Shown piece after piece: positions 37,622-62,668 of a stretch of DNA of 64,000 nucleotides. A program made the position numbers and the translations under genes. Under the pieces are notes generated by a model, which did no database searches, was not told the DNA's origin, and saw nothing but the letters and a program-made list of their open reading frames with translations. Position 1 is the first letter of the stretch; each line of letters begins with the position of its first letter. Origin of the DNA: Kalmanozyma brasiliensis GHG001 (Eukaryota; Basidiomycota; Ustilaginomycetes; Ustilaginales); the NCBI RefSeq assembly GCF_000497045.1, contig NW_015961981.1, forward strand, positions 250,401 to 314,400, written 5' to 3'.

Positions 37622-40600
37622 TCAGTCCGAATCATCGATCTCAATGACATCGACCTCTTCCACGCCACTCTTCCGTGGCGACGTGCTCGGCCTAGCCCCC
37701 TTCCTAGGCGAAACGGACTTGCTCGCCCTCGCACTCCTCCCTCCCGCGCCCCTATCCACATTCAGCTCGGGCTCGCTCTCCGTCTCGCTCCCCATATCCT
37801 CCTCCGTCGCCTTCTTTTCGGGCTCTCCACGCGGCACATCTTCCTGATCCACATCCATCTCCTCGTCCTCTTCAGACACCAACAGCTCATAAACACTATC
37901 GATCTCCTCTGGACTCAACACGATATCCACCAGATCACCCGCCACATCTGCGATCGCCTCCAGCAGCATCGACACCCTATCCAGCCCCTTGACACTCTGC
38001 TCCACCTGCTCTCGCACCCTCTCCTCCCCTTGTCCCTCTTTACGCAGTCCCGGCAGGATTAAAACAAGCAATTTGCGCTCGGTCGCGATCCAATCCGGCT
38101 CCGAGCAGAAAGCAATCCGTGAAAGTGCGACGACAAAGCTCTGCCGAATGCCGTTGAGCATGCTATACGTCTCGGGCTGGTCCAGCTTGTTGGCTAGGGA
38201 GATGCTTCCCATGCGCTCCTGTGCTTGACTCGAGGGTTCGAAGCGATGGGACTGGCCGGTGGCGTTGGGGAGCGGGTAGTTGTACAGCAGGTTCAGGAGG
38301 CGAACATCCATGACGATGCGTTCGGTTGCTTGGACGAGATCTGCGCCGGAAGGATCGGGGGTGGCGTGGGAGGATCCGCGACGGTATGTCGGCATGCGTG
38401 GCGGTAGTAGGAACGTTGGACGGCTCTGGAGCCAGACGAAGTCGGAATCGAGCGAGAGACACCGGATCAAGGCCGCGAGGAGCGCCGCGCTGTCGGCCAG
38501 GACGATGAGTGTGTCTGCTGAGCGAAGCGCGGCTTGCGTCAGGAACGTGAGGATAGCGCGGTGCAGATGATGCCATTCGCTCTCTGCCATGTCGAAGCGT
38601 CGGTCGACCAGATGCTTGACGAGCAGTTCGAGGACGGGGAAGCGAGCATTTGCGCGTGGCGCTGTCGAATGGTGACTCGACCGACTGGCTTCTCGAAAGT
38701 CCGATTTTGTTGCCAGGCATTCGTGAATCAAAGGAGCATTAGAGACCGCCGAGCTGAGCATGCGTACGACGTTGAAGAGGATGAAAGTAGATCGATCGGG
38801 GTGCAAGAGCTTGTGAAGCACGCCTGGTCGAGAAAGCAGTCGAAGAGGATGGACGCTCGACGTCAGACTCGCTTCAGGACATTCGCACATGGCGCGGAGA
38901 ACTTGCACGGCCTCATGCAGCAGATCCTCGCGAGCCTCCGACGACAAAGTCCAGCTACCAAGCCCAACTCCGCCGCCCGGTTCCTTGGCTGGGGAGTCCA
39001 TGTCTAGGTCGTCGTCTTGATGGCTTTCGTCATGCGAGACGCCGTTGCTGCCCGAGCGCGCTCGCGTGCCTGAAGATCGGCAATCAGCCACGCACTGAGC
39101 CAAGATCTCGCGCACATGGATTGGCGTACTATACTGTGCCCACTCCGCATTGAAGACCTCTTCGTCGATACCGAGAAAAGCCATCTCATCGCGCCTAGCT
39201 TCTTGATCCGTCTGGAGGCACTCGAGATCCAACCAGAATCTCGGCAACGTCGAGACGAGGCACGAAACCAGACGCAAAACGTCAGTTAAGAGATCGGTCT
39301 GACACAGTCGCAGTAGCACGCCGGCCATGACCATGAGCGAAGAGGCAATGGCGTGCGAGAGATGCATCGTCGCGGAAGAAAAGTCGAGCTCCTCGATTGC
39401 TCCACCACTGCCGTCGGCGGACAGTAGACGGAAGGCATCTTCGCGTTCCTCCGGCTCCAAGACCCTGGCGCTGCTGAGACTGGTGAGCAGCGATTCGACC
39501 GCCTTTCGGTAGCGAAAGAGCAGGAGATCCGGGCATCCTTGAACGAGATTGGCGGAGATGAGGCGGCTGAGTGTGCTGGTGCTAAAGGCGGAATCCTCTG
39601 TTGAATTTGGCGTCCTTGCGTGAGGTGACGAGGCAGATGGATTGAAGCGATTCGACGGATAAGAAGCAGGCGCAGCAGCAGGAGTCGATGCGTGGCTGAG
39701 CAAGAGCGAGACGATAGTGGTACGACGAGAAAGAATCTCGGACATCGCTGCGAGATAGTGGTGCTCCTTGGCTTTGTCTGCATCATGGATGGTGGCGGGC
39801 ACTGGTGCGTTCTTTCTGACAGAGGGTGGCGGGTGGTCGTCCGCCATGGCGAAGTCATCATCGTGATCGTGCGCCGCCATTTGAGACTGGTCCCCGTCCC
39901 ATACAGCCGGAGCCAGAGCGCTCGATTGCTTGGCCTTGGCTGAAGGTTTGACGGGCGACTCTCTCTGTTGTCGTACCTTCTCCTGTACAGGACCAAAGTC
40001 GGCAAAGGAGTTCTGCAAACCTCGGAAGGCTTTTGCCTTGGATGCAGATGTGGCGGCCGTGGGTGGCCGAGGAAACTGCGGCAGAGGTTTGGCGGCCGAT
40101 CTCGTTGGTGTCCCAGGCTCCTCGCGGTCGACATCCATACCTGCGTAGCGTTGACGGTTGCCAGAGCTGCCGCTTCCGCCTCGGATACCAAAGCGGTTGG
40201 CCTTCGTCGGGGTTGTGAGGCCGGCTCTCACCTGGCTCTCCTGCCTCCTGTCGACGTCGCGAAGGCCTACAGGAGGCAGTCGCGCTACGCTGGAGGGCCA
40301 TATCCGACGGCTGGTATCTTGTTCGACCCTGCGGAAGGCGGTCTCTGTCTCGAGTCGTTGAAGCCGACGCTCTTGATCCTTCTGCAAGCGATCGAGCGCG
40401 GCACGATGCTCCTGCTCCCGCACGACTTCTCGCTCTCGAAGCTTGGAGTTCTCCTGATTGAGCTTGGTCAAGTTCTGCCTGACCACAGCCACTTCTCCCG
40501 ATTTGCGATACGCCTCTTGCCTAAGCTTGTCGACCGTCTCTTCTTGCGCTTTCTGTGCAGTTCGCAGCCTTTCCACCTCGGCACGCAGCTGCTCGAGCTC

Positions 40601-41206
40601 CTCGGTGTCGGCGCCAACATGACCTTGGTGCGCTGCGTCGGTGACGGTGATTGGATCTGGTGGCTCCTCAGAGATAGCCGAGGGTCGACCTCGACGTTGC
40701 GGCTTCCGTGCTACGTCCTGGTTGTGATCCGCATTCGATTGATGCGGCTGCGATGTTGGCATCTGCTGAGACATGCGGATTGCCTCCTCCTCTACTTGGT
40801 CGAGCGCATGGTTGCCCGCCCACCACTGCTCATCATCATTGTCGGCGAACTCTTCATCTCTGAAGTTGCGGACGATGACCTGATCTGGCTCTGGTTCGCG
40901 ATACGCAGCGGCGACTCGGCTGAGATTGGAAGGTCCGGGATCCAGGCGTTGCTTCTTCGATGGCGGTTGGACGAATGTGCCGATGCGTCTTGCGGGTCGT
41001 GGTGGTTCAGCTTCAAGACGAAAGGTGAAGCTCGCATTTGGCGCTGCAGCGTGTGAGGCTGGCTGCTGGACGGCCTGAGAAGCAGAGTAGTTGGCTTCAG
41101 CCTGTGCAAGGCTCTCTTCGAGCTCCGGGTCGAGTAAGCTTTGATCATCGAAGAGAGAATCGAATTCGTCTTCGTCTGCGTCGGGTTGACGAGCGTAGGC
41201 CGACAT
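37622..41206 (-). CDS. ATRIP/Rad26/Lcd1-like DNA-damage checkpoint protein
   Basis: A 1194-residue protein from ATG 41206 (MSAYARQPDADEDEFDSLF); an in-frame ATG five codons upstream at 41221 is also possible. The acidic N-terminus EDEFDSLFDDQSLLDPELEESL resembles the RPA-binding motif of ATRIP. A coiled coil lies at ~200-290 (LEQLRAEVERLRTAQKAQEE, YRKSGEVAVVRQNLTKLNQE), matching Rad26/ATRIP layout. A disordered stretch follows, then a long helical, HEAT-like C-terminal half (~490-1080). The C-terminal ~120 residues are acidic, then basic, ending VIEIDDSD. ATRIP recruits the ATR kinase to RPA-coated ssDNA. The divergent neighbour FEN1 works on Okazaki fragments, which fits. Assignment rests on motif style, so it is less certain than its neighbours. 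Confidence 0.65.
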   Translation of the reverse strand: MSAYARQPDADEDEFDSLFDDQSLLDPELEESLAQAEANYSASQAVQQPASHAAAPNASFTFRLEAEPPRPARRIGTFVQPPSKKQRLDPGPSNLSRVAAAYREPEPDQVIVRNFRDEEFADNDDEQWWAGNHALDQVEEEAIRMSQQMPTSQPHQSNADHNQDVARKPQRRGRPSAISEEPPDPITVTDAAHQGHVGADTEELEQLRAEVERLRTAQKAQEETVDKLRQEAYRKSGEVAVVRQNLTKLNQENSKLREREVVREQEHRAALDRLQKDQERRLQRLETETAFRRVEQDTSRRIWPSSVARLPPVGLRDVDRRQESQVRAGLTTPTKANRFGIRGGSGSSGNRQRYAGMDVDREEPGTPTRSAAKPLPQFPRPPTAATSASKAKAFRGLQNSFADFGPVQEKVRQQRESPVKPSAKAKQSSALAPAVWDGDQSQMAAHDHDDDFAMADDHPPPSVRKNAPVPATIHDADKAKEHHYLAAMSEILSRRTTIVSLLLSHASTPAAAPASYPSNRFNPSASSPHARTPNSTEDSAFSTSTLSRLISANLVQGCPDLLLFRYRKAVESLLTSLSSARVLEPEEREDAFRLLSADGSGGAIEELDFSSATMHLSHAIASSLMVMAGVLLRLCQTDLLTDVLRLVSCLVSTLPRFWLDLECLQTDQEARRDEMAFLGIDEEVFNAEWAQYSTPIHVREILAQCVADCRSSGTRARSGSNGVSHDESHQDDDLDMDSPAKEPGGGVGLGSWTLSSEAREDLLHEAVQVLRAMCECPEASLTSSVHPLRLLSRPGVLHKLLHPDRSTFILFNVVRMLSSAVSNAPLIHECLATKSDFREASRSSHHSTAPRANARFPVLELLVKHLVDRRFDMAESEWHHLHRAILTFLTQAALRSADTLIVLADSAALLAALIRCLSLDSDFVWLQSRPTFLLPPRMPTYRRGSSHATPDPSGADLVQATERIVMDVRLLNLLYNYPLPNATGQSHRFEPSSQAQERMGSISLANKLDQPETYSMLNGIRQSFVVALSRIAFCSEPDWIATERKLLVLILPGLRKEGQGEERVREQVEQSVKGLDRVSMLLEAIADVAGDLVDIVLSPEEIDSVYELLVSEEDEEMDVDQEDVPRGEPEKKATEEDMGSETESEPELNVDRGAGGRSARASKSVSPRKGARPSTSPRKSGVEEVDVIEIDDSD

Positions 41207-41774: not shown

Positions 41775-42899
41775 ATGGGCATCAAAGGCCTCACCGCCCT
41801 CATCTCCGACGAGGCGCCTGGCGCCATCAAGGAGATGGAGATCAAGACCTACTTTGGTCGCAAAGTCGCCATCGACGCCTCCATGTCTCTCTATCAGTTC
41901 CTCATCGCCGTCCGACAGAACGACGGCCAACAGCTCATGACCGAGTCGGGCGAGACCACCTCGCATCTCCTTGGCTTCTTTTACCGAACCCTCCGCATGA
42001 TCGATTACGGCATCAAGCCCATGTACGTTTTCGATGGTACACCGCCTGACCTGAAAAAGGAGCTTCTCCAAAAACGATTCGGTCGCCGAGAGGAAGCGAG
42101 GGAGCAGGAGGAGGAACAAAAGGACGTTGCTGACGTGGAGAAGATGGACCAGCTGGCGCGACGACAGGTTCGACCCACGCGACAGCACAACGAAGAAGTG
42201 CGACACCTGCTCAAGCTCATGGGCATCCCATGTGTGATTGCGCCCTCCGAAGCCGAGGCTCAGTGCGCGGAGCTCGCCCGAGCCGGTAAGGTCTTCGCTG
42301 CAGGATCCGAGGACATGGACACGCTCACCTTCGGAACGCCGATCCTACTCAAGCACCTCACGGCGTCCGAACAGAAGAAGCTGCCTGTCCACCAGGTCGA
42401 CCTGCCCAAAGCGCTCGAAGGGCTCCAGATGTCCATGGCGCAATTCATCGACCTTTGCATCCTGCTCGGTTGCGACTACCTCGACCCCATCAAGGGCATC
42501 GGGCCCAAAACGGCCCTCAAGCTCATCCGAGAGCACAAGACGCTCGAGAACGTCATCGAGCATCTCAAAGAGGAAGGCAAGAAGTCGGTCCAGATCCCCG
42601 AGCACTGGCCGTTCCAGGAGGCGAGGAAGATCTTTGAGAACCCCGACGTGCAGAAGGGCAAGGATCTGGATCTCAAGTGGGACACCCCGGATGTTGAGGG
42701 GATGGTCAAGTTCCTCTGTCAGGACAAAGGGTTCAGCGAGGACAGGGTGAGAAAGGGATGCGAGAAGCTGCAAAAGTCGTTGAGCCAGAAACAGCAGGGC
42801 AGGTTGGATGGGTTCTTTACCGTCAAGCCGGGATCCGCACCACCAAAACGCAAGGCGGAGGACGACAAGAAGAACGCCAAGAAGAAGGGCAAGAAGTGA
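41775..42899 (+). CDS. RAD27: Flap endonuclease 1 (FEN1/Rad27)
   Basis: A 374-residue protein, the normal FEN1 length. The N-terminal domain begins [15 protein letters not shown] and carries [13 protein letters not shown] with the catalytic Asp34. [18 protein letters not shown] supplies further metal ligands. The I domain has [16 protein letters not shown] and [33 protein letters not shown] is the helix-two-turn-helix DNA-binding region. A PCNA-interaction box, QGRLDGFF, lies at 341-348, and the tail is Lys-rich, a nuclear localisation signal. FEN1 removes 5' flaps in Okazaki fragment maturation and long-patch base excision repair. No intron is needed; the frame is complete. Confidence 0.98.
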
Positions 42900-42943: not shown

Positions 42944-44962
42944 CTAGGCTGTAGTCAACTGCATTGGTTGAGCACGACCGCTCGCACTTCCTCGCAGCCG
43001 GTCTTCCAACACGCTCGTCGTATTGGTCCTCGTCAGCCTATCAATCGTGCCACCCGCCATGTCCCGATACATAAAAGTCTGCTCCGACGTCCCCGTGCCA
43101 TTCGCAATGTGCCCATCCACGAGCACCGACCGCGCCTCCCCTCTCCTGCTCGACAGCGTCGTGTGCGCCAACGCCGCCACTGGGTCGGCATGCACCACCG
43201 TCGTTTCGTCGCCCACCATCTGCCCGAGAGCTTCTGTGCTTGAAGTGGGAGAGATCCTCCGAACGGTCCGGTCGAACTGCTGCGTGACCTGCGCGTCGAA
43301 GCTGCTGTTGGACAGGTAGGATGCAACGTAGAGCGGGTAGTTGTAGTCCAGCTGCACGGCTTGTACATCCTGCAACCCTGCGTCTGACAGAATTTGAAGA
43401 TCGTCCCATGACCAGCTGCTGTCGATGGAGCTGTTGTCGAAGACGACCGACCTCATCCAGCCGTAGCTTCTCTGATCGTTCGTCTGAGCGGTGGCGTTGA
43501 CGTATCCCTCGTTGCCATATTGCGCCTGCTGGTACCAGCCCGCTAGGTACTCTTTCCCAGATCCAGTCCTGATGCTACTCACGACGCCGAACTTCCTGCT
43601 CCTCCGCAGCCCGACCTCGTACGTCAGCGACCCGTTCGTCGTTGGATCGCCTTCCATCGTCCCATCCACCCACCCATCCACCTCGTCCCCACCTTCCACC
43701 CTCACAACCTCGCCCGTCGTCCTCTCGCCCGACTCATCCAGATACACCTGCACATTCCCACTGACAAACCATCCCTCGCCCACCGCCCCTCCCGTCTCGC
43801 CACTTACCACCTTCACCACGAACTCATGCACCTCTCCATCCGTCAACTTCCCCAACCAGGGCGTGATATCCACGTTGTAACTCGGCTGATCGAAGCTCCC
43901 CCAATTAGCGTTTGGTCTCCACAGCAACGGATTCACCCCACCGGTAAACACCACCGGGTAGGGCGTCACGAAGCCGGCGAACCTCCCGTCGATGTGCAGT
44001 TGCACCTCGCGATACGTCCCATGACCGAAGTAGCCTGCGCTAGATAGCGAAGGGGTGAGGAAGCGAGTGGGGAGGTTGGTGTACCAGAACTCTTCGTTTG
44101 CCGTTCCCGATGCGTAGATCTCAACGATCGCTCGGGCTGCGTTTTGTGGGATCGTGAGCGATGTACTGGCGTTGTTCACCCCGGTGATGAGGAAGACCGA
44201 GTTGGCCGTTTGTAAGCGCTTCGATAGGGGCAGTACCAGATCCGGAGCCCTCTCTGCGAGCGGTAGAGCTGCGACACTTGCACGTCGACGATGCTTCCCA
44301 CCTTGCCCAACCACGCCGTCGACGGAAGCAGTGAGGCTCAACGTCACATTCAACGCCCCCGTATACGTTTCATCCACAATGTTCGGCAGGTCAAACACCA
44401 CATCCGCCCTCTGGCTCCACAACGACCAGTATCGTCCCACATCCTTTTGGATGTCCCAATAGACACCCGTGCGGGTGGGCTCCGGATTGTCCAGTCGCAT
44501 CACCTCGACTCCTTGCCCCGTGACATTGTTGCCGATCCACACCGTGCCCAGTCGGTCGAATTGGCGTCCTCGGGTCTCGCCGTGGATGTCGAGGGTGAGA
44601 CCCGTCCAGCTGATTGGATCCGCACAGGGGGTGCCGGAGAACGAGACCAAGGGGTCGAAGAGGAGGTGCGAGGTAGAGCCGTAGCTGTTGGCGAAGGAAC
44701 GATTGACTAGGGTGACCGAGCAGGAGATGCCGGAGTGGGTGAGGATGGGCGCTGGTGGGTGGATCTGGAAGCTTTCGGAGAGCGGTGTCGAGGTTGACTG
44801 CGGCTGCGGTTGACCGTTGGGCGGGGTTGAGCTGGATGTATCACCGCCCGACTGGAACATGGGTGAGCTCCAGATCGACGGGATCTTGAGCTGCTGGCTG
44901 AGCTCAACAGCACCGATGCTTGCGATCGCCGTCACTAGCAGCGCATACTGTGCGAGACGCAT
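42944..44962 (-). CDS. Secreted/vesicular PNGase A-like glycoamidase
   Basis: A 672-residue protein. Residues 1-18 (MRLAQYALLVTAIASIGA) form a signal peptide. After a Ser/Pro/Gln-rich segment the conserved region begins near residue 70. Blocks matching the peptide-N4-(N-acetyl-glucosaminyl)asparagine amidase A family include SWTGLTLDIHGETRGRQFDRLGTVWIGN (shortened here: HGETRGRQFDRLGTVWI), VEVMRLDNPEPTRTGVYW, WYTNLPTRFL and YREVQLHIDGRFAGF. Plant PNGase A cleaves N-glycans from glycopeptides in acidic compartments; fungal members are poorly characterised. Many N-glycosylation sequons are visible. A TATA box lies ~52 nt upstream. Whether the enzyme is active here is not shown by sequence alone. 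Confidence 0.8.
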   Translation of the reverse strand: MRLAQYALLVTAIASIGAVELSQQLKIPSIWSSPMFQSGGDTSSSTPPNGQPQPQSTSTPLSESFQIHPPAPILTHSGISCSVTLVNRSFANSYGSTSHLLFDPLVSFSGTPCADPISWTGLTLDIHGETRGRQFDRLGTVWIGNNVTGQGVEVMRLDNPEPTRTGVYWDIQKDVGRYWSLWSQRADVVFDLPNIVDETYTGALNVTLSLTASVDGVVGQGGKHRRRASVAALPLAERAPDLVLPLSKRLQTANSVFLITGVNNASTSLTIPQNAARAIVEIYASGTANEEFWYTNLPTRFLTPSLSSAGYFGHGTYREVQLHIDGRFAGFVTPYPVVFTGGVNPLLWRPNANWGSFDQPSYNVDITPWLGKLTDGEVHEFVVKVVSGETGGAVGEGWFVSGNVQVYLDESGERTTGEVVRVEGGDEVDGWVDGTMEGDPTTNGSLTYEVGLRRSRKFGVVSSIRTGSGKEYLAGWYQQAQYGNEGYVNATAQTNDQRSYGWMRSVVFDNSSIDSSWSWDDLQILSDAGLQDVQAVQLDYNYPLYVASYLSNSSFDAQVTQQFDRTVRRISPTSSTEALGQMVGDETTVVHADPVAALAHTTLSSRRGEARSVLVDGHIANGTGTSEQTFMYRDMAGGTIDRLTRTNTTSVLEDRLRGSASGRAQPMQLTTA

Positions 44963-45322: not shown

Positions 45323-48130
45323 CTACACACGGGAAGCGACCCAGATAGCGCCTCTGCACCCGGCCGCAATAACCGCCGACAACAAGGCATGCCCTGCCGC
45401 CTGCTGGCTCTCGTGCTCCACCGCAGTATCCAGATGTTCCAGTTCATCATCCCTGAACTCCCGTATGATATCGCTCAGCAACGGCAAACTCGGATGCACG
45501 TCCTCCTTCTCCAGAATCGTCTTCAACTCCTTCAACTGATCATCGTAGTGTTCGCCGATGACGCTTTCGACGGCCTCGGTGCAGGCCATGGCGCTCCGTG
45601 GGCCCAGCAGCGCGGTGACACCGCCGAGCACGCGCCCCGCCACGGACCATACGGGCAGCAGCGCCGATGGTCGAACATTGTGCTGTCGCAACAACGCACG
45701 CATCACCTCGAGATGCTTCTTCTCGGTCTGCCACATTTCTTTCGACAAATCGCGATTCTTGACGTCACCAAGCGCTCCGAACATGTCTGCTTGACCTTGG
45801 TAAATCGTGTTGGCCGCGATCTCGCCAGAGTGGTCGACGCGAAGCATGTCCCGGAGCGCCCGAACCTGGGATGGCGTGAGAGAGGCGAGCGAGGGAGTGG
45901 ACGTGGTCGCTGCCGAGTCGGAGGTGGCCGAGGGACTGGTGTAGGCGTCGGATGCCAGCGGGCCCGTAGAGTGGGAGGAGTGCTGACGGATCTGCTGGAA
46001 GACGGCGGATACCGGCAAAGCGCGAGGTCGCGATGCAGTGTGCAGGCCTCGCCGAGGGGTGGTGGAAAAGGATCGCGATGTAGGCCACGGCGCACTACTG
46101 CGAGTGGTGGTGGAACCTGCTTGACGCATAAACGCGTTCTTGACAAAGCCAAGCTCGTTGATGACCTCCAACCCCGTGCTCCTGGCCCAGACCACACCTC
46201 TGCCGACCACTTCCTTGGCTGCCGTCTTGACCAGTCCATCCCTCTCTCTTTGCTGCTTCCCGCCATCCGCCTGCTGGCTCAGTGGCACAGGTGTACCAGC
46301 ATAGAGCCAATGCAGGTGGTCTACAGCGGAGAGCATCTTTTGGTTCTCCCAGTATCTGTCCCTCGCATAGCCCTTCAGTGCATTGTACGAGCCGAGGTCG
46401 GCACCTGCCCCCAACGCTGATCGCAATGTGCGCGAAAGCGAGCGAACGTCGGCGATGCCCAAGTTGAGACCTTGTCCCGCGAGCGGGTGGATGGTATGCG
46501 CAGCATCGCCGACGAGAACAGTGCGTCCACGGCCAGCCCCCTGCCCAGCTCCCTCCGGTGCGAGACCGACAGCGGCCATGGCACCGGCGAGCAAGCCGGA
46601 CGGCAAGAGCGAAGAGCTATTGAGCGACGCGCCAATGTATGCATCTGCATGCTTGAGGTTGAGTGGGAAGCTGGCGACGCTCTTTGCATTCAGTGAGAGC
46701 ACCTTGGGTGGCACTTCACCGGTGCCGCTCTCGGGTAGAGGCTCGCCTAGCCCACGCTCGACCCATTCGGCTGCTGTTGGGATCTCTGCGTCGAGCCAAG
46801 ACCAATTGCGCTGAACGTTGTCCGGAGTAGGATGCTTGGTGTACTGCACCACGCGCTCGAACAGCCGCTCGATGTACGACCAGGGCAGACGGAATGCTGC
46901 GTCGATCAGCTTGGCGAGTGGCTCGTCAGCAGATCCGGCCGTCTCGCGGTGGAGCAGGGTCAACGCAGCGGCGACTTCGGGCTCGAGCGTCCACACCAAC
47001 GACCCTGTCGAGTCGGACAGTGGGAGGAAAGCGATCGTGCCGCTAGGCAAGAAGCGTTGGTAGGCTGTGAAGCTCACCGGTGGCTCACCATCTTCGATGC
47101 CGCGACACCGCAAGGTGCCAACCAGGCCTCGTCGGTCGTACGGCCAGCCATAGTCGCCGATGCCTGCGTATTTGCGAACAGGAGAGTTGGGTCCGTCCGC
47201 ACCCACGAGCAGCCTCGTCTGAATTGCGTCGCCTGTCGAAAGCTGCACGACAGGCCAAGGATCCTGTTCGGCAGAAGCGCTGTCTGCTTCCGTCTTGGAG
47301 GCGGCAAGGATGGATTCGACTTTGGCGCTGTCCTGGATGCTGCAGATGTCTTTGCCGGGTCCGTGCTCGAGGTATTGCAGCATAGCTTGCTGGAGATTGC
47401 TGATCTCGACCATGACGCTGATTTGGGAAGATGAACCTGCAGCATCGGAAAGGTCAGATGAGTCAAAGTCGAGGAGAGCGCCAGAGAGACCGTCCCAGAC
47501 GCGCATCGAGTTGACGGGGCGAAGGCGGTGTTCCACCAGATACGGGTAGACGCCGATACGTTTGAGCCAGTTGAGGTTTTCAGATGTAAGTGAGATGACG
47601 CGGTTCTCCCAGTCGAGACCGTCAGCCGAGGATGTCGTGGCGGACGAGAATGCCTGGCTCTGTGAGAGATGCTTTGCGCGATCGGCAGACCACGTTCTGA
47701 GGCGACTCAAATCGGAAGCTTCGATAAGGGTGATTGGGTGGGCGTTCGAAAGGCCCGGTGAGCTTACAGCTCCTGAAGCAACGAGATCGCATGCTAGACC
47801 GAGACCGACGACGCCTCCTCCGACGACCACAATGTCAGAGTCGATGTTGTGCGAGTATGGCGATGTAGGAGCGGCCGTGGCCAGTGCACGATGTGGGCCT
47901 GCCTTGGACGCAGAAGATGCCGTGAAGTGCTCTCGAGGGAGAAGCCGAGAAGGTCCTGCCACCGCATTCCGCGTCGCTTGAGTCGATGCTGCCGTCAGTC
48001 CATGTCTGAAAGATCGTGGAGACGCCGGTGGACCTGCTGCAGGTGTGCGGGAGGAGCCGGCCTTCGAAAGGGACCTTGCTGCCGCCGCGAGCGGTCCTGC
48101 CGTTGTTGATGTGCGTGCAAGCCTCGACAT
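45323..48130 (-). CDS. COQ6-COQ7: COQ6-COQ7 fusion: two ubiquinone ring hydroxylases in one frame
   Basis: A single uninterrupted 935-codon frame. Residues 1-90 are an Arg/Ser/Ala-rich mitochondrial presequence. Residues ~95-650 are COQ6: FAD motif DIVVVGGGVVGLGLACDLV (~98-116), a middle block PVRKYAGIGDYGWPYDRRGL, and GDAAHTIHPLAGQGLNLGIA (~540-560), then the normal COQ6 C-terminus. A Ser/Thr/Arg-rich linker (~655-755) follows. Residues ~757-935 are COQ7/Cat5: RVDHSGEIAANTIYQGQ, TEKKHLEVM, EAVESVIGEHY and RDDELEHLDTAVEH give the carboxylate and His ligands of the di-iron site. COQ6 (flavin) performs C5 hydroxylation and COQ7 (di-iron) C6 hydroxylation, with COQ5 and COQ3 steps in the same complex Q. 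Both halves look catalytically complete. Confidence 0.92.
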   Translation of the reverse strand: MSRLARTSTTAGPLAAAARSLSKAGSSRTPAAGPPASPRSFRHGLTAASTQATRNAVAGPSRLLPREHFTASSASKAGPHRALATAAPTSPYSHNIDSDIVVVGGGVVGLGLACDLVASGAVSSPGLSNAHPITLIEASDLSRLRTWSADRAKHLSQSQAFSSATTSSADGLDWENRVISLTSENLNWLKRIGVYPYLVEHRLRPVNSMRVWDGLSGALLDFDSSDLSDAAGSSSQISVMVEISNLQQAMLQYLEHGPGKDICSIQDSAKVESILAASKTEADSASAEQDPWPVVQLSTGDAIQTRLLVGADGPNSPVRKYAGIGDYGWPYDRRGLVGTLRCRGIEDGEPPVSFTAYQRFLPSGTIAFLPLSDSTGSLVWTLEPEVAAALTLLHRETAGSADEPLAKLIDAAFRLPWSYIERLFERVVQYTKHPTPDNVQRNWSWLDAEIPTAAEWVERGLGEPLPESGTGEVPPKVLSLNAKSVASFPLNLKHADAYIGASLNSSSLLPSGLLAGAMAAVGLAPEGAGQGAGRGRTVLVGDAAHTIHPLAGQGLNLGIADVRSLSRTLRSALGAGADLGSYNALKGYARDRYWENQKMLSAVDHLHWLYAGTPVPLSQQADGGKQQRERDGLVKTAAKEVVGRGVVWARSTGLEVINELGFVKNAFMRQAGSTTTRSSAPWPTSRSFSTTPRRGLHTASRPRALPVSAVFQQIRQHSSHSTGPLASDAYTSPSATSDSAATTSTPSLASLTPSQVRALRDMLRVDHSGEIAANTIYQGQADMFGALGDVKNRDLSKEMWQTEKKHLEVMRALLRQHNVRPSALLPVWSVAGRVLGGVTALLGPRSAMACTEAVESVIGEHYDDQLKELKTILEKEDVHPSLPLLSDIIREFRDDELEHLDTAVEHESQQAAGHALLSAVIAAGCRGAIWVASRV

Positions 48131-56994: not shown

Positions 56995-58833
56995 CTACTG
57001 CGTTTGCTGTCGGTGGCCACCACCGCCGCCTCCGCGACGACCTCGGTAGCCGCCCCGTCCACCACCTCTGCCATTCCCTCGTCCGCCCCTCCCGCCACCC
57101 CCACCACCCGGCGCCCCACCCGCATTGCTATAATGCTTCCTCCACATCTGCTGTTCGATCATGGGCTTCTCGGGATACTCCCCCCTGGCCTCCCATCCAC
57201 CGGGCGTCGTCCAGGGGTGATGCCGATACTTCTCCTCCACGCCCTCCAACACGGGCAGCCACGTCTTGACGTACTCTCCTTTGGCATCGTAATCCTTCCC
57301 CTGCTTGATCGGGTTGAACTGTCTTGAGCTCCTCGGATCGTTGCCCACTCCTGCCACATACTGCCAATTGCCCCAATTCGAGTTGGGATCGAAATCCACC
57401 AGCCAGCTTTCGAAGTACTCTGCTCCATATCTCCAATTCCAGCCCAAATCCTTGGTGAGGAAGCTCGCTACGTTCTGACGCCCACGGTTGCTCATAAACC
57501 CGGTTTGGACCAGTTCGACCATGTTAGCGTCGATCATGGGCACACCTGTTTTGCCCGTCGCCCATCGAACAAAGTGATCTTTCGGGTCGGTCAGACTCGA
57601 ACTGTTCTTCCACTCGTACGCTTTGGATGAAGCGCTTTTGGGCGAGATCTCTTCCTCAATCCCGCCCAAGGTGAAGAGGTGCGAACCGAATTTCCAGCCG
57701 ACAAAGTAGAAGTAATCGCGCCAGAGCAGTTCGAAGAGGATCCAGTAGCCTCCTCCCTTGTTGTGTGCGCCAGTCTGTTCGTCGAGTTGCGTAGCACGTT
57801 GGGCGATGAGTCGGGGAGAGAGGAGACCGTGAGCGAGAGCAGCGGCGAATTTGGTGCTGTAATCGGCACCGAGCATCTGATTGCGCGTCTCCTTGTACGA
57901 CGCTCCGGGTGAAGATTTGCCAGATGCGAAATAGTGCTCGAGACGCTTGAGCGCTTCCGTCTCGCCACCGCGGTAGGGGAAGGCGCTGTGCGGAACGTCG
58001 AACTCGGTGGGTGAAGAGGAGGTCACTTTGGATAGCAACTCTTTATGACCCAGCACCGGTTCCTCCAGCAGCGGCGAGAGAAGGTGTTTCTCCACAGCCT
58101 CTTTGTTGGAGAACTCGTCCTTGGTGGAGAGATTGTACACTCCCGCGTCGTCCTGCACATCGACGTTGTCCGGGAAAGGCTTGAGTTTAGTCGGCGCCTC
58201 CAGGGGAGCACGAAACATGTCCGGTCCCTCCACCTGCTTCCTAAAGTGGGTAAACACATCGGGCAACTGCTTCACCGGGAACCCCAGATCGCGCGAGTGA
58301 ATCAACGACTTGCCCTCCAACAACTTGAACGGGCATTGCAGATCACCCAAGATCCCGTCGAGTCGCTTCTGCACGTTGACCTCTTCGGTGTTGATCTCGC
58401 GTCCGAGGTAGACGGCTTCGACGGTATCGCCTTTATCGCGGATGCTCTTGATGAGCGAAGGGACGACGCTCTCGGGTGTACCGGCGAAGATGGCCAGATC
58501 GGACCCGACGGACCGCAATCGTTCGCGCAGATCGAATACGCTCTCGTTGATGAACTTGGTACGGTGGACACCCGTGCGCCAGATGCCGAGTTCGCGCGTC
58601 TTGGCGAATTGGGAGGAGCCCTTGCCACCGCCTTCCTTGCCCGCTTTGACGAGAGACGGGAAGCCAGAGACTTCGACATGCCGCTGATCCCACACGTAGA
58701 CGGGCAGGACGTGCGTGATAGGCTTCTTGAATTGGGCGGACGAGGGTGTGGGCTCGGAACAGAGGTGGAAGATCGGATGGTCGTGCAGACGAAGGTCGTT
58801 GCGGAGGACCGCGATGAGGATGTTGCGCGTCAT
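56995..58833 (-). CDS. DASH-type cryptochrome with RGG-rich C-terminus
   Basis: A 612-residue protein. The photolyase/cryptochrome N-terminal domain opens MTRNILIAVLRNDLRLHDHP, with VLPVYVWDQRHVE following. The FAD-binding domain contains FPYRGGETEALKRLEHYF, TRNQMLGADYSTKFAAALAHG and GYWILFELLWRDYFYFVGWKFG, then GVPMIDANMVELVQTGFMSNRGRQNVASFL and NWGNWQYVAGVGNDPR (shortened motifs), all diagnostic of CRY-DASH. The last ~55 residues are Gly/Arg-rich with RGG repeats, seen also in other fungal CRY-DASH proteins. The family repairs cyclobutane dimers in ssDNA or acts in blue-light signalling. The RGG tail suggests nucleic acid binding and possible PRMT1 methylation. It is divergent from Hsp110, with a 1.45-kb interval. 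Confidence 0.94.
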   Translation of the reverse strand: MTRNILIAVLRNDLRLHDHPIFHLCSEPTPSSAQFKKPITHVLPVYVWDQRHVEVSGFPSLVKAGKEGGGKGSSQFAKTRELGIWRTGVHRTKFINESVFDLRERLRSVGSDLAIFAGTPESVVPSLIKSIRDKGDTVEAVYLGREINTEEVNVQKRLDGILGDLQCPFKLLEGKSLIHSRDLGFPVKQLPDVFTHFRKQVEGPDMFRAPLEAPTKLKPFPDNVDVQDDAGVYNLSTKDEFSNKEAVEKHLLSPLLEEPVLGHKELLSKVTSSSPTEFDVPHSAFPYRGGETEALKRLEHYFASGKSSPGASYKETRNQMLGADYSTKFAAALAHGLLSPRLIAQRATQLDEQTGAHNKGGGYWILFELLWRDYFYFVGWKFGSHLFTLGGIEEEISPKSASSKAYEWKNSSSLTDPKDHFVRWATGKTGVPMIDANMVELVQTGFMSNRGRQNVASFLTKDLGWNWRYGAEYFESWLVDFDPNSNWGNWQYVAGVGNDPRSSRQFNPIKQGKDYDAKGEYVKTWLPVLEGVEEKYRHHPWTTPGGWEARGEYPEKPMIEQQMWRKHYSNAGGAPGGGGGGRGGRGNGRGGGRGGYRGRRGGGGGGHRQQTQ

Positions 58834-60289: not shown

Positions 60290-62668
60290 ATGTCGTCCGT
60301 CGTCGGTATCGACGTGGGTAACGCCTCGTCCAAGATCGGCGTCGCCCGTGCTCGTGGTGTCGATGTCATCGCCAACGAGGTCTCCAACCGCGCTACCCCT
60401 TCGCTCGTCTCTTTCGGTCAGAAGGCGAGAGCGCTCGGTGAGGCCGCTGCCACCGCTCAGACCTCCAACTTCAAGAACACCGTCGGCTCGCTCAAGCGTC
60501 TCGTAGGTCGCACATTCCAGGACCCCGAGGTGCAAAAGGTCGAGAAGAACTTCATCAACGCAGAGCTCGTCGATGCCAAGGGTGAAGTTGGCGTCAAGGT
60601 CCGTCTGGCAGGGGAGGAGCAGGTCTTCTCCGCTACCCAGCTCCTCGCCATGTACCTCGGCAAGCTGCGTGACACCACCTCCAAGGAGCTCGGTGGTGCT
60701 GGCGTCAGCGACGTCGTCCTCTCCACTCCTCTCTGGTTCACCGATGCGCAGCGACGAGCCTACCTCGATGCCGCAGAAATCGCCGGCCTCAACCCTCTCC
60801 GCCTCCTTAACGACACAACCGCCGCTGCTCTTGGTTACGGTATCACCAAGACCGACCTCCCTGAAGCCGATAACCCGCGCAACGTCGTCTTCTGCGACAT
60901 TGGCCACTCGTCCTACCAGGTCGCCGTCGTCTCGTTCAGCAAGGGTCAGCTCACCGTCCTCGGCACCGCCGCTGACCGCAACTTTGGTGGTCGTGACTTT
61001 GACCGTGCTCTCCTCCTGCATTTTGCCGAGGAGTTCAAGGGCAAGTACAAGATCGACGTTCTCTCCAGCCCCAAGGCCTCCTTCCGTCTCGCTGCTGGTT
61101 GCGAGCGCTTGAAGAAGGTTCTCTCTGCCAACGCCGTCGCCCCTCTCAACGTCGAGAACCTCATGGAGGACATTGACGCCAGCTCGCAGCTCAAGCGCGA
61201 GGAGTTCGAGTCGCTCATCTCCCCCCTCCTTGAGCGCATCACTGTGCCCCTCGAGGCTGCCCTCAAGCAGTCTGGCTTGACCAAGGACGAGATCCACTCG
61301 ATCGAGATGGTCGGTGGCTCTACCCGTGTTCCCGCCCTCAAGGAGCGCATCTCGGCCTTCTTCGGCAAGCCCCTCTCCTTCACCTCGAACCAGGACGAGG
61401 CCGTCGCCCGAGGATGCACCCTCGCCTGTGCCGTTCTCTCGCCCGTCTTCAAGGTCCGAGAGTTCAGCGTCCACGATGCCACCCCCTACTCGATCAAGGT
61501 CACCTGGGACAAGGCCGCCGACGTGCCTGATGAGGACACCGAGCTCGTGGTCTTCCAGCCCAACAACCCTATCCCTTCCACCAAGATCCTCACCTTCTAC
61601 CGCAAGGACAACTTTGACCTCGAGGCACACTACGCCTCGCCCGAACAAATCCCAGAGGGCATCAATCCCTGGATCGGCAAGTTCTCCATCAAGGGCGTCA
61701 CCCCCAACGCAGAGGGCGACCACTCGATCGTCAAGGTCAAGGCTCGTCTCAATCTGCACGGTGTCCTCAACTTCGAGGCCGCCTACACTGTCGAGGAGAT
61801 CGAGAAGGAGGAGGAGGTTCCTGTCACCGACCCCGCGGCTATGGAGACCGACGGCGACAAGGAGGCCGCTGCCCCCAAGACCGAGATCCGAAAGGTCAAG
61901 AAGCTGCAGCGCAAGGCCGACCTCAAGATTGTCTCTGGCTTCACCGGCGGCAAGGATGCCAGCCTGGTGGCCGGCATGAAGGAGACCGAGGGTCAGCTCT
62001 ACTCGAACGACAAGCTGGTCATCGACACCGAGGACCGCAAGAACGCGCTCGAGGAGATGATCTACGACCAGCGCTCCAAGCTCGACGACCGATACAAGCT
62101 CTTTGTCACTGCCGACGAGAAGGAGAAGTACCTCGCTGCGCTCAACGCGCAGGAGGACTGGCTCTACTCGGAGGAGGGCGAGGATGCCAAGAAGTCGGCG
62201 TACGTCGAGCGCATCGACTCGCTGCAGAAGATCGGCGGACCCATCCAGTTCCGCGAGAAGGAGTTCCAGGAGCGACCCAAGGCGGCCTCGGTGCTGCGCG
62301 AGGCCATCAACAAGTACATGGAGATGGCTCAGGGCGGCGACGAACAGTACAGCCACATTTCCGAAGATGACAAGCAAAAGGTCATCGAGAAGTGCGCCAC
62401 CGTCGCCAAGTGGCTCGATGACGGATTGTACAAGCAGTCCGAACAGCCCAAGAACGCCGACCCCAAGATCGTCTCGGCTGATATGATCAAGAAGAAGGAC
62501 GAGGTGATTTACTTCTGCCACCCCATCATGAGCAAGGTCAAGCCTCGCGTCGACACCACGCAGGCGCCTACTCCGGCCAAGGACGACAAGAAGCAGGAGC
62601 AGAAGCCTACCACCGCCGACGCTGACGCTGACAAGAACGACGGCCCGGGCGAGATGGATGTCGACTAA
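60290..62668 (+). CDS. SSE1: Hsp110/Sse1 co-chaperone
   Basis: A 792-residue protein from ATG 60290 (MSSVVGIDVGNASSKIGVAR). The N-terminal ATPase domain (1-~385) has VGIDVGNASSKIGVA, RLLNDTTAAALGYGI, VVFCDIGHSSYQVAVVSF and EMVGGSTRVPALKERI, the Hsp70-superfamily phosphate and adenosine motifs in the Hsp110 version. The beta domain and a long acidic loop (~505-535, EEIEKEEEVPV) follow, then the extended helical domain. The C-terminus ends GEMDVD, not the EEVD of Hsp70. Hsp110 is the nucleotide exchange factor of cytosolic Hsp70 and a disaggregase partner. An 826-codon minus-strand frame runs through the whole gene and is a codon-bias artefact. Confidence 0.97.
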   Translation: MSSVVGIDVGNASSKIGVARARGVDVIANEVSNRATPSLVSFGQKARALGEAAATAQTSNFKNTVGSLKRLVGRTFQDPEVQKVEKNFINAELVDAKGEVGVKVRLAGEEQVFSATQLLAMYLGKLRDTTSKELGGAGVSDVVLSTPLWFTDAQRRAYLDAAEIAGLNPLRLLNDTTAAALGYGITKTDLPEADNPRNVVFCDIGHSSYQVAVVSFSKGQLTVLGTAADRNFGGRDFDRALLLHFAEEFKGKYKIDVLSSPKASFRLAAGCERLKKVLSANAVAPLNVENLMEDIDASSQLKREEFESLISPLLERITVPLEAALKQSGLTKDEIHSIEMVGGSTRVPALKERISAFFGKPLSFTSNQDEAVARGCTLACAVLSPVFKVREFSVHDATPYSIKVTWDKAADVPDEDTELVVFQPNNPIPSTKILTFYRKDNFDLEAHYASPEQIPEGINPWIGKFSIKGVTPNAEGDHSIVKVKARLNLHGVLNFEAAYTVEEIEKEEEVPVTDPAAMETDGDKEAAAPKTEIRKVKKLQRKADLKIVSGFTGGKDASLVAGMKETEGQLYSNDKLVIDTEDRKNALEEMIYDQRSKLDDRYKLFVTADEKEKYLAALNAQEDWLYSEEGEDAKKSAYVERIDSLQKIGGPIQFREKEFQERPKAASVLREAINKYMEMAQGGDEQYSHISEDDKQKVIEKCATVAKWLDDGLYKQSEQPKNADPKIVSADMIKKKDEVIYFCHPIMSKVKPRVDTTQAPTPAKDDKKQEQKPTTADADADKNDGPGEMDVD

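What the first reader, a model, noticed from the sequence alone, without database searches (positions are those of the whole stretch)
45323..48130. COQ6 and COQ7 fused in one reading frame
The two flavin and di-iron hydroxylases of the ubiquinone ring, normally separate genes, form one 935-codon frame without stop or apparent splice site. Both halves keep their cofactor motifs. A covalent link between the C5 and C6 hydroxylases would fix their ratio and position inside the CoQ synthome. COQ5 and COQ3 act around them, so direct channelling is conceivable.
Basis: partly seen in the sequence, partly recalled or inferred. Interest (0 to 1): 0.8.

Follow-up and report, generated by a model that had tools for sequence, protein, structure and literature searches.

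The report
Fused COQ6–COQ7 coenzyme Q gene
In a smut-related yeast, two enzymes that add oxygen to coenzyme Q are encoded as one long protein, and the stretch between them still looks like the import signal of the second enzyme, so the cell probably makes one precursor and may cut it in two inside the mitochondrion.

Summary
45323-48130 (-) is one 935-codon frame: a COQ6-type flavin hydroxylase followed by a full-length COQ7 di-iron hydroxylase. It is the only COQ7 match in the 17.27-Mb genome. It is no assembly accident: 26 protein clusters (14 named, 12 unnamed) carry both domains, and both halves fit a single origin. Databases already name five clusters 'related to ... COQ6 and COQ7'; my searches found no paper on it. 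It is nearly free of acidic residues (12 of 1334 in 26 of 27 rows), rich in arginine, disordered in the model (675-721), and carries R-x-H-S/A shortly before LASDAYT in 26 of 27 rows. Separate COQ7s of Tilletia show the same arrangement at the end of their presequence. So the joint is best read as COQ7's old mitochondrial presequence, now internal. Most likely this is a tandem precursor that the matrix processing peptidase can cut into COQ6 and COQ7, as described for yeast Arg5,6; cleavage is inferred, not shown. A lasting covalent link is possible but not favoured.

The parts
45323..48130 (-). COQ6-COQ7 fusion gene, 935 codons, 99.4 kDa
47840..48130 (-). residues 1-97: N-terminal mitochondrial presequence-like region (predicted disordered 1-89)
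   Evidence: composition; pLDDT
46118..47839 (-). COQ6 half, residues 98-671: FAD-dependent hydroxylase of the C5 type; ends near an AGS motif, shortly after which separate COQ6 proteins of the subphylum also end (8 of 12 within 10 residues, the others within 40)
   Evidence: best fold match UbiI 4k22, TM 0.84 by target length; coordinates
45968..46108 (-). residues 675-721: disordered, basic, acid-free joint, read as the retained COQ7 presequence
45974..45991 (-). IRQHSS, residues 714-719: proposed internal processing site (R-x-H-S)
   Evidence: R-x-H-[SA] with its S/A 6-10 residues before LASDAYT in 26 of 27 rows; coordinates
45938..45958 (-). LASDAYT, residues 725-731: conserved start region of COQ7 proper, shared with many separate COQ7s
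45326..45973 (-). COQ7 half (from residue 720): di-iron demethoxyubiquinone hydroxylase

Best explanation
A tandem mitochondrial precursor. In the ancestor of Ustilaginomycetes, a COQ6 gene became joined in frame to a following COQ7 gene, COQ7's own presequence included. One mRNA gives one roughly 99-kDa precursor. Its N-terminal presequence takes it into the matrix. The former COQ7 presequence, now internal, is cut by the mitochondrial processing peptidase near R715-Q716-H717-S718. This releases COQ6 and a COQ7 of about 23 kDa in equal amounts for the CoQ synthome. Shown: the fusion, its conservation, one branch for the fused rows in each tree, composition and motif of the joint, and its disorder in a model. 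Inferred: expression as one protein, import, cleavage, equal amounts, and loss of the COQ6 stop codon next to COQ7.
For: Single frame; only COQ7 match in the genome; 26 clusters with both domains; fused rows form one side of a branch in the COQ7 tree (100/99, 26 of 55 rows) and the COQ6 tree (SH-aLRT 98, 17 of 37 rows). Joint: acidic residues 12 of 1334 (0.9%) in 26 of 27 rows, against 23.8% (23 rows), 10.4% (20 rows) and 6.8% (24 rows) in three other variable stretches, 2.0% in the N-terminal presequence region (18 rows) and 1.7% in 81 of 118 separate COQ7s whose presequence could be cut out. Of 21401 windows of 51 residues outside the N-terminal region, 411 hold no acid and 337 of these centre between MRQAGS and MLRVDH. 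R-x-H-[SA] with its S/A 6-10 residues before LASDAYT in 26 of 27 rows, 7 residues in 22. Tilletia separate COQ7s end their presequences likewise (..RLHSSSSKSGPLASDAY..RCHSHSARAGPLASDAYT). The 12 residues before LASDAYT match separate COQ7s in register better than permuted columns do (3 of 2000 permutations as good; three Tilletia rows only, 7 of 2000). AlphaFold: residues 675-721 below pLDDT 50, most of both enzymes above 80. Precedents, seen as passages of papers: Arg5,6 and Rsm22-Cox11.
Against: No RNA, proteomic or cleavage data. Single Tilletia pairs are weak (2705, 609 and 463 of 20000 shuffles as good), and the rows are related, so the tests are not independent. The joint's mean hydrophobic moment (0.38) is below that of separate COQ7 presequences (0.43) and the N-terminus (0.47), not far from other loops (0.30, 0.31, 0.34). 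Eight of 26 joints hold 1-3 acidic residues (one search lists them). Violaceomyces P0027 lacks the motif and most of the joint, though its model also lacks the COQ6 N-terminus. A flexible S/T/A/R linker could look similar. No MPP-site predictor was at hand; that R-x-H-S fits an MPP or MPP/Icp55 site is recalled knowledge.
Confidence: 0.62

Rival explanations
1. The fusion stays whole: one bifunctional enzyme of about 90 kDa in the CoQ synthome, with a flexible tether between the two hydroxylases.
For: Uninterrupted frame conserved in 26 clusters; flexible joint; Violaceomyces keeps the fusion without the R-x-H-S motif.
Against: The joint keeps presequence-like make-up and an R-x-H-S/A motif at a nearly fixed place, in step with the presequence end of separate COQ7s. 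A plain tether would not need that.
Confidence: 0.25
2. COQ7 is also made alone from an internal transcript or start inside the COQ6 3' end (for example M668), with the joint used as an ordinary N-terminal presequence.
For: M668 precedes the whole presequence-like stretch and is kept in 28 of 28 rows looked at.
Against: M668 has T at -3 in the DNA, a poor start context, against A for the main ATG (the rule is recalled). The position belongs to the COQ6 C-terminus; some separate COQ6s have M there too, others I or other residues. No transcript data.
Confidence: 0.1
3. Two genes wrongly joined by an assembly or sequencing error, or an intron read as coding.
For: One related cluster (P0021) is frameshifted in its COQ7 half, so errors or decay do occur.
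Against: 26 clusters from several sources (ncbi, uniref, ena, lgn) carry the same join, with conserved residues inside it; no intron candidate in a strict scan.
Confidence: 0.02

Closest known systems
COQ6-COQ7 proteins of smut fungi in public databases (Sporisorium reilianum, S. scitamineum, Ustilago trichophora (two), Melanopsichium: 'related to Ubiquinone biosynthesis protein COQ6 and COQ7')
   Same: Same order, same domains, same joint; orthologues.
   Different: Nothing essential. The deposited Kalmanozyma brasiliensis model (P0001, 826 aa) starts 73 residues later and leaves out 36 residues of the window's frame.
Arg5,6 of Saccharomyces cerevisiae (tandem precursor cut internally by MPP)
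   Same: Two enzymes in one precursor with an internal presequence-like stretch (as told in passages of PMC8847149).
   Different: Other enzymes; cleavage is demonstrated there, only inferred here.
Rsm22-Cox11 of Schizosaccharomyces pombe
   Same: Fungal tandem mitochondrial protein cleaved after import (passage of PMC12375894).
   Different: Unrelated functions are joined there; here two steps of one pathway.
Separate COQ6 and COQ7 of Exobasidiomycetes, Malasseziomycetes and Agaricomycetes
   Same: Same enzyme families; LAS-x-AY-like start of COQ7 proper in many; COQ6 ending 1-40 residues after AGS or AGG in 12 of 12 rows of the subphylum looked at.
   Different: Two genes.

Membership tests
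COQ6 (UbiH/UbiF/VisC/COQ6 flavin hydroxylases) | Match to the family model TIGR01988 | tested here: met
   268.8 bits against cut-off 224.65; separate fungal COQ6s align.
COQ6 (UbiH/UbiF/VisC/COQ6 flavin hydroxylases) | Full-score match to the COQ6 equivalog model TIGR01989 | tested here: not met
   298.8 bits, cut-off 489.3, in two stretches, though it is the top-listed family. So COQ6 identity rests on the top rank, the family match and fungal homologues, not on this cut-off.
COQ6 (UbiH/UbiF/VisC/COQ6 flavin hydroxylases) | C5-hydroxylase fold and FAD motifs | tested here: met
   Best PDB fold match UbiI 4k22_B, TM 0.84 by target length, rmsd 4.9; motifs. The model is weak at parts of 510-549, which includes part of the GDAAHT motif.
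COQ7 | PF03232 full length with six di-iron ligands | tested here: met
   Profile 2-169 of 169; positions aligned to 7ssp_E (which residues are ligands is recalled).
COQ7 | COQ9 partner in the same genome | tested here: inconclusive
   No match at E 1e-3 with PF08511 or at E 1 with TIGR02396; one weak candidate, 16.8 bits against cut-off 20.5.
Tandem mitochondrial precursor cut by MPP (Arg5,6 type) | Two complete enzymes in one frame with an N-terminal presequence | tested here: met
   presequence by composition only
Tandem mitochondrial precursor cut by MPP (Arg5,6 type) | Internal presequence-like stretch with an arginine cleavage-type motif | tested here: met
   by composition and motif, with a modest hydrophobic moment; not met in Violaceomyces P0027
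Tandem mitochondrial precursor cut by MPP (Arg5,6 type) | Internal cleavage by MPP in mitochondria | not testable with these tools
   needs an import assay or N-terminomics

The most novel reading that the evidence does not exclude
The fusion stays uncut and ties the C5 and C6 hydroxylases into one chain. That would fix a 1:1 ratio and a common place in the CoQ synthome of a whole fungal class, possibly easing dependence on a strongly diverged COQ9.
Probability: 0.2. Interest if true: 0.65.

Novelty: new member of a known kind. Interest (0 to 1): 0.42.

Why it matters
It is a conserved natural link between two non-consecutive enzymes of coenzyme Q synthesis, which speaks for the two being needed together in the synthome. 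It also offers a clean test of how fused mitochondrial precursors evolve: did the class keep the inner presequence so that the enzymes can still be parted? And, in the sequences listed here, it separates Ustilaginomycetes from Exobasidiomycetes and Malassezia.

Tried and rejected
Assembly artefact: rejected, 26 clusters with both domains. Intron in the joint: 0 candidates in a strict scan of codons 640-765 (the last printed line of that call used wrong offsets and is not used). Second COQ7 copy in the genome: none found. Independent fusions elsewhere: of 29 long proteins with a COQ7 match, 26 are the COQ6-COQ7 kind; the other three (Marasmius crinis-equi, Phenoliferia psychrophenolica, Dimargaris xerosporica) have unrelated partners and may be merged gene models (the search reaches only relatives that share words with this COQ7).

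Loss of COQ9: not concluded, a weak split candidate exists (no PDB sequence match). Ancestral adjacency: Tilletiaria anomala COQ6 and COQ7 are both listed with a longest contig of 260435 bases, so they probably share a contig; distance and order could not be read. For Meira, Jaminaea, Exobasidium, Sympodiomycopsis, Parajaminaea, Tilletia horrida and T. walkeri the two figures differ, so adjacency is not general (same calls). Ustilago maydis was not seen by name. Contacts between the two enzymes in the model were not assessed (no error matrix returned), and no COQ7 structure is among the 50 fold matches shown. COQ7 entries P0121 and P0122 begin at MLRVDH and P0126 is a broken fused fragment; I took them for partial models of fused genes.

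Papers: searches gave none on a COQ6-COQ7 fusion, judging by titles and starts of abstracts (2, 3, 1, 0, 0, 0 and 1 papers listed); searches were for precedents and the COQ metabolon. Passages only were seen of PMC8847149, PMC12375894, PMC7615680 and PMC11495197 (the last is held only in part). Only open-licence papers are held.

Full report
Observation. The minus strand holds one ATG-to-stop frame at 45323-48130, 935 codons. Pfam finds COQ7 at 758-932, nearly the whole profile, and an FAD-binding stretch at 534-577. NCBIfam finds the ubiquinone hydroxylase family over its cut-off, and the COQ6 equivalog as top match but below its own cut-off, in two stretches. PDB chain 7ssp_E, a mitochondrial 5-demethoxyubiquinone hydroxylase (human COQ7, recalled), matches at 9e-38 with the di-iron positions in register (which residues bind iron is recalled).

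Source. The window lies in a 17.27-Mb assembly of 26 contigs. The closest database protein is the Kalmanozyma brasiliensis entry P0001: 822 of 826 residues identical, the four differences being its first four residues. It starts 73 residues later and leaves out 36 residues. The window is therefore probably that species (Ustilaginales).

Distribution. Of 385 proteins found with the whole query, the best 120 were listed. P0001-P0020 and P0022-P0027, 26 clusters, carry both domains; 14 are named and 12 are not. P0021 is fused up to the joint but frameshifted in COQ7. Named species are Kalmanozyma brasiliensis, Sporisorium (3), Ustilago (3, one with two clusters), Pseudozyma hubeiensis, Melanopsichium, Testicularia, Pseudozyma flocculosa, Thecaphora and Violaceomyces. 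Of these I looked up four: two in Ustilaginales, one in Urocystidales, one in Violaceomycetales, all in Ustilaginomycetes. The listed proteins of Exobasidiomycetes, Malassezia and Agaricomycetes are separate COQ6 or COQ7 (classes recalled except Tilletiaria and Malassezia). A search for long proteins with a COQ7 match gave 29: the same 26 plus three with unrelated partners. The own genome has one COQ7 match, this one.

Origin. In a COQ7 tree of 55 rows the 26 fused rows are one side of a branch, support 100/99. In a COQ6 tree of 37 rows the 17 fused rows are one side of a branch, SH-aLRT 98 (quick method). The COQ7 tree came with warnings: the bootstrap had not settled, and long branches meet, one such join being Ceraceosorus with the fused rows. 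The nearest separate relative is not settled. One fusion in the ancestor of Ustilaginomycetes is the simplest reading. Tilletiaria COQ6 and COQ7 are listed with the same longest-contig length of 260435, which suggests, but does not show, that the genes were neighbours; in seven other species of the subphylum the figures differ.

The joint. In 12 separate COQ6 rows of the subphylum the protein ends 1-40 residues after an AGS or AGG motif, within 10 in eight; fused ones run through MRQAGS into the joint. Separate COQ7s mostly begin with a basic presequence, then an LAS-x-AY-like stretch and the catalytic domain. The fused proteins keep LASDAYT and, before it, a stretch averaging 51 residues with 0.9% acidic and 13% basic residues (26 of 27 rows, the window plus P0002-P0026; P0027 failed the pattern). 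Three other variable stretches hold 6.8 to 23.8% acidic residues (20-24 rows), the N-terminal presequence region 2.0% (18 rows), and separate COQ7 presequences 1.7% (81 of 118 rows). R-x-H-[SA] stands before LASDAYT in 26 of 27 rows, its S/A 7 residues before in 22, and 6, 8, 8 and 10 in the other four. Violaceomyces lacks it. In a register test without LASDAYT, using 25 of 27 fused rows (P0002 and P0027 left out by the pattern) and 54 separate rows, 3 of 2000 column permutations did as well as the true register; with three Tilletia rows only, 7 of 2000; single pairs were weak. The rows are related, so these are not independent tests. The hydrophobic moment of the joint is not strong.

Structure. 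An AlphaFold2 model from 63 aligned sequences has mean pLDDT 80.8 and pTM 0.67. Residues under 50 are chiefly 1-89 and 675-721, the N-terminus and the joint, plus short stretches within 510-549 that touch the GDAAHT motif. The best PDB fold match of the model is UbiI, the bacterial C5 hydroxylase, TM 0.84 by target length, rmsd 4.9. The disordered stretch ends next to R715-Q716-H717-S718-S719.

Mechanism. The simplest account is a tandem precursor with two presequences, one at the start and one inside. A review passage says that MPP cuts Arg5,6 of yeast inside as well as at the N-terminus, and that such motifs were found in Atp25, Etp1, Rsm22-Cox11 and others; COQ6-COQ7 is not in that list (the original paper was not held). 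Another paper's passage says that Rsm22-Cox11 is cleaved after import. By analogy the smut protein would yield a COQ6 and a COQ7 of about 23 kDa (computed from residue 719). That step is inferred. The rival, a lasting two-headed enzyme, is not excluded; Violaceomyces, if its model is right, would be the best case for it.

COQ9. COQ7 works with COQ9 in animals and yeast (recalled). PF08511 and TIGR02396 gave no match at their thresholds. At E up to 10 a candidate on contig C15 appeared at 17.4 bits, whose frame reaches 16.8 bits against a cut-off of 20.5. A basic, presequence-like frame lies upstream across a possible intron. COQ9 may be there but much diverged; not settled. COQ4 matches lie on another contig, C6.

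Verdict. Real, conserved, already named in databases, and not found in the papers searched. It is a new member of the known kind 'tandem mitochondrial precursor', with the internal presequence as the main new point.

Noticed in passing
window 45323-48130 versus P0001: The deposited Kalmanozyma brasiliensis protein (826 aa) starts 73 residues later and skips 36 residues that other fused proteins shown keep in part; its gene model is probably wrong there.
   Followed up: partly
L005:1387-2615 (-): A possible, strongly diverged COQ9 in two exons, just below the Pfam cut-off.
   Followed up: partly
P0021 (unnamed NCBI source): A fused relative whose frame shifts at the start of the COQ7 half; sequencing error or decay not told apart.
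   Followed up: no
P0027, Violaceomyces palustris: Fused protein with a much shorter joint without the R-x-H-S motif; the model also lacks the COQ6 N-terminus.
   Followed up: partly
P0130 and P0131, Ceraceosorus guamensis: Two different separate COQ7 proteins are listed for this species.
   Followed up: no
window 42944-44962 (-): Downstream neighbour is a peptide N-glycanase A-like protein, PF12222.
   Followed up: no
window 37622-41206 (-): A 1194-codon frame without any Pfam match at E 1e-5.
   Followed up: no
window 41775-42899 (+), 56995-58833 (-), 60290-62668 (+): XPG-type nuclease, DNA photolyase-family and HSP70 genes; ordinary neighbours.
   Followed up: no
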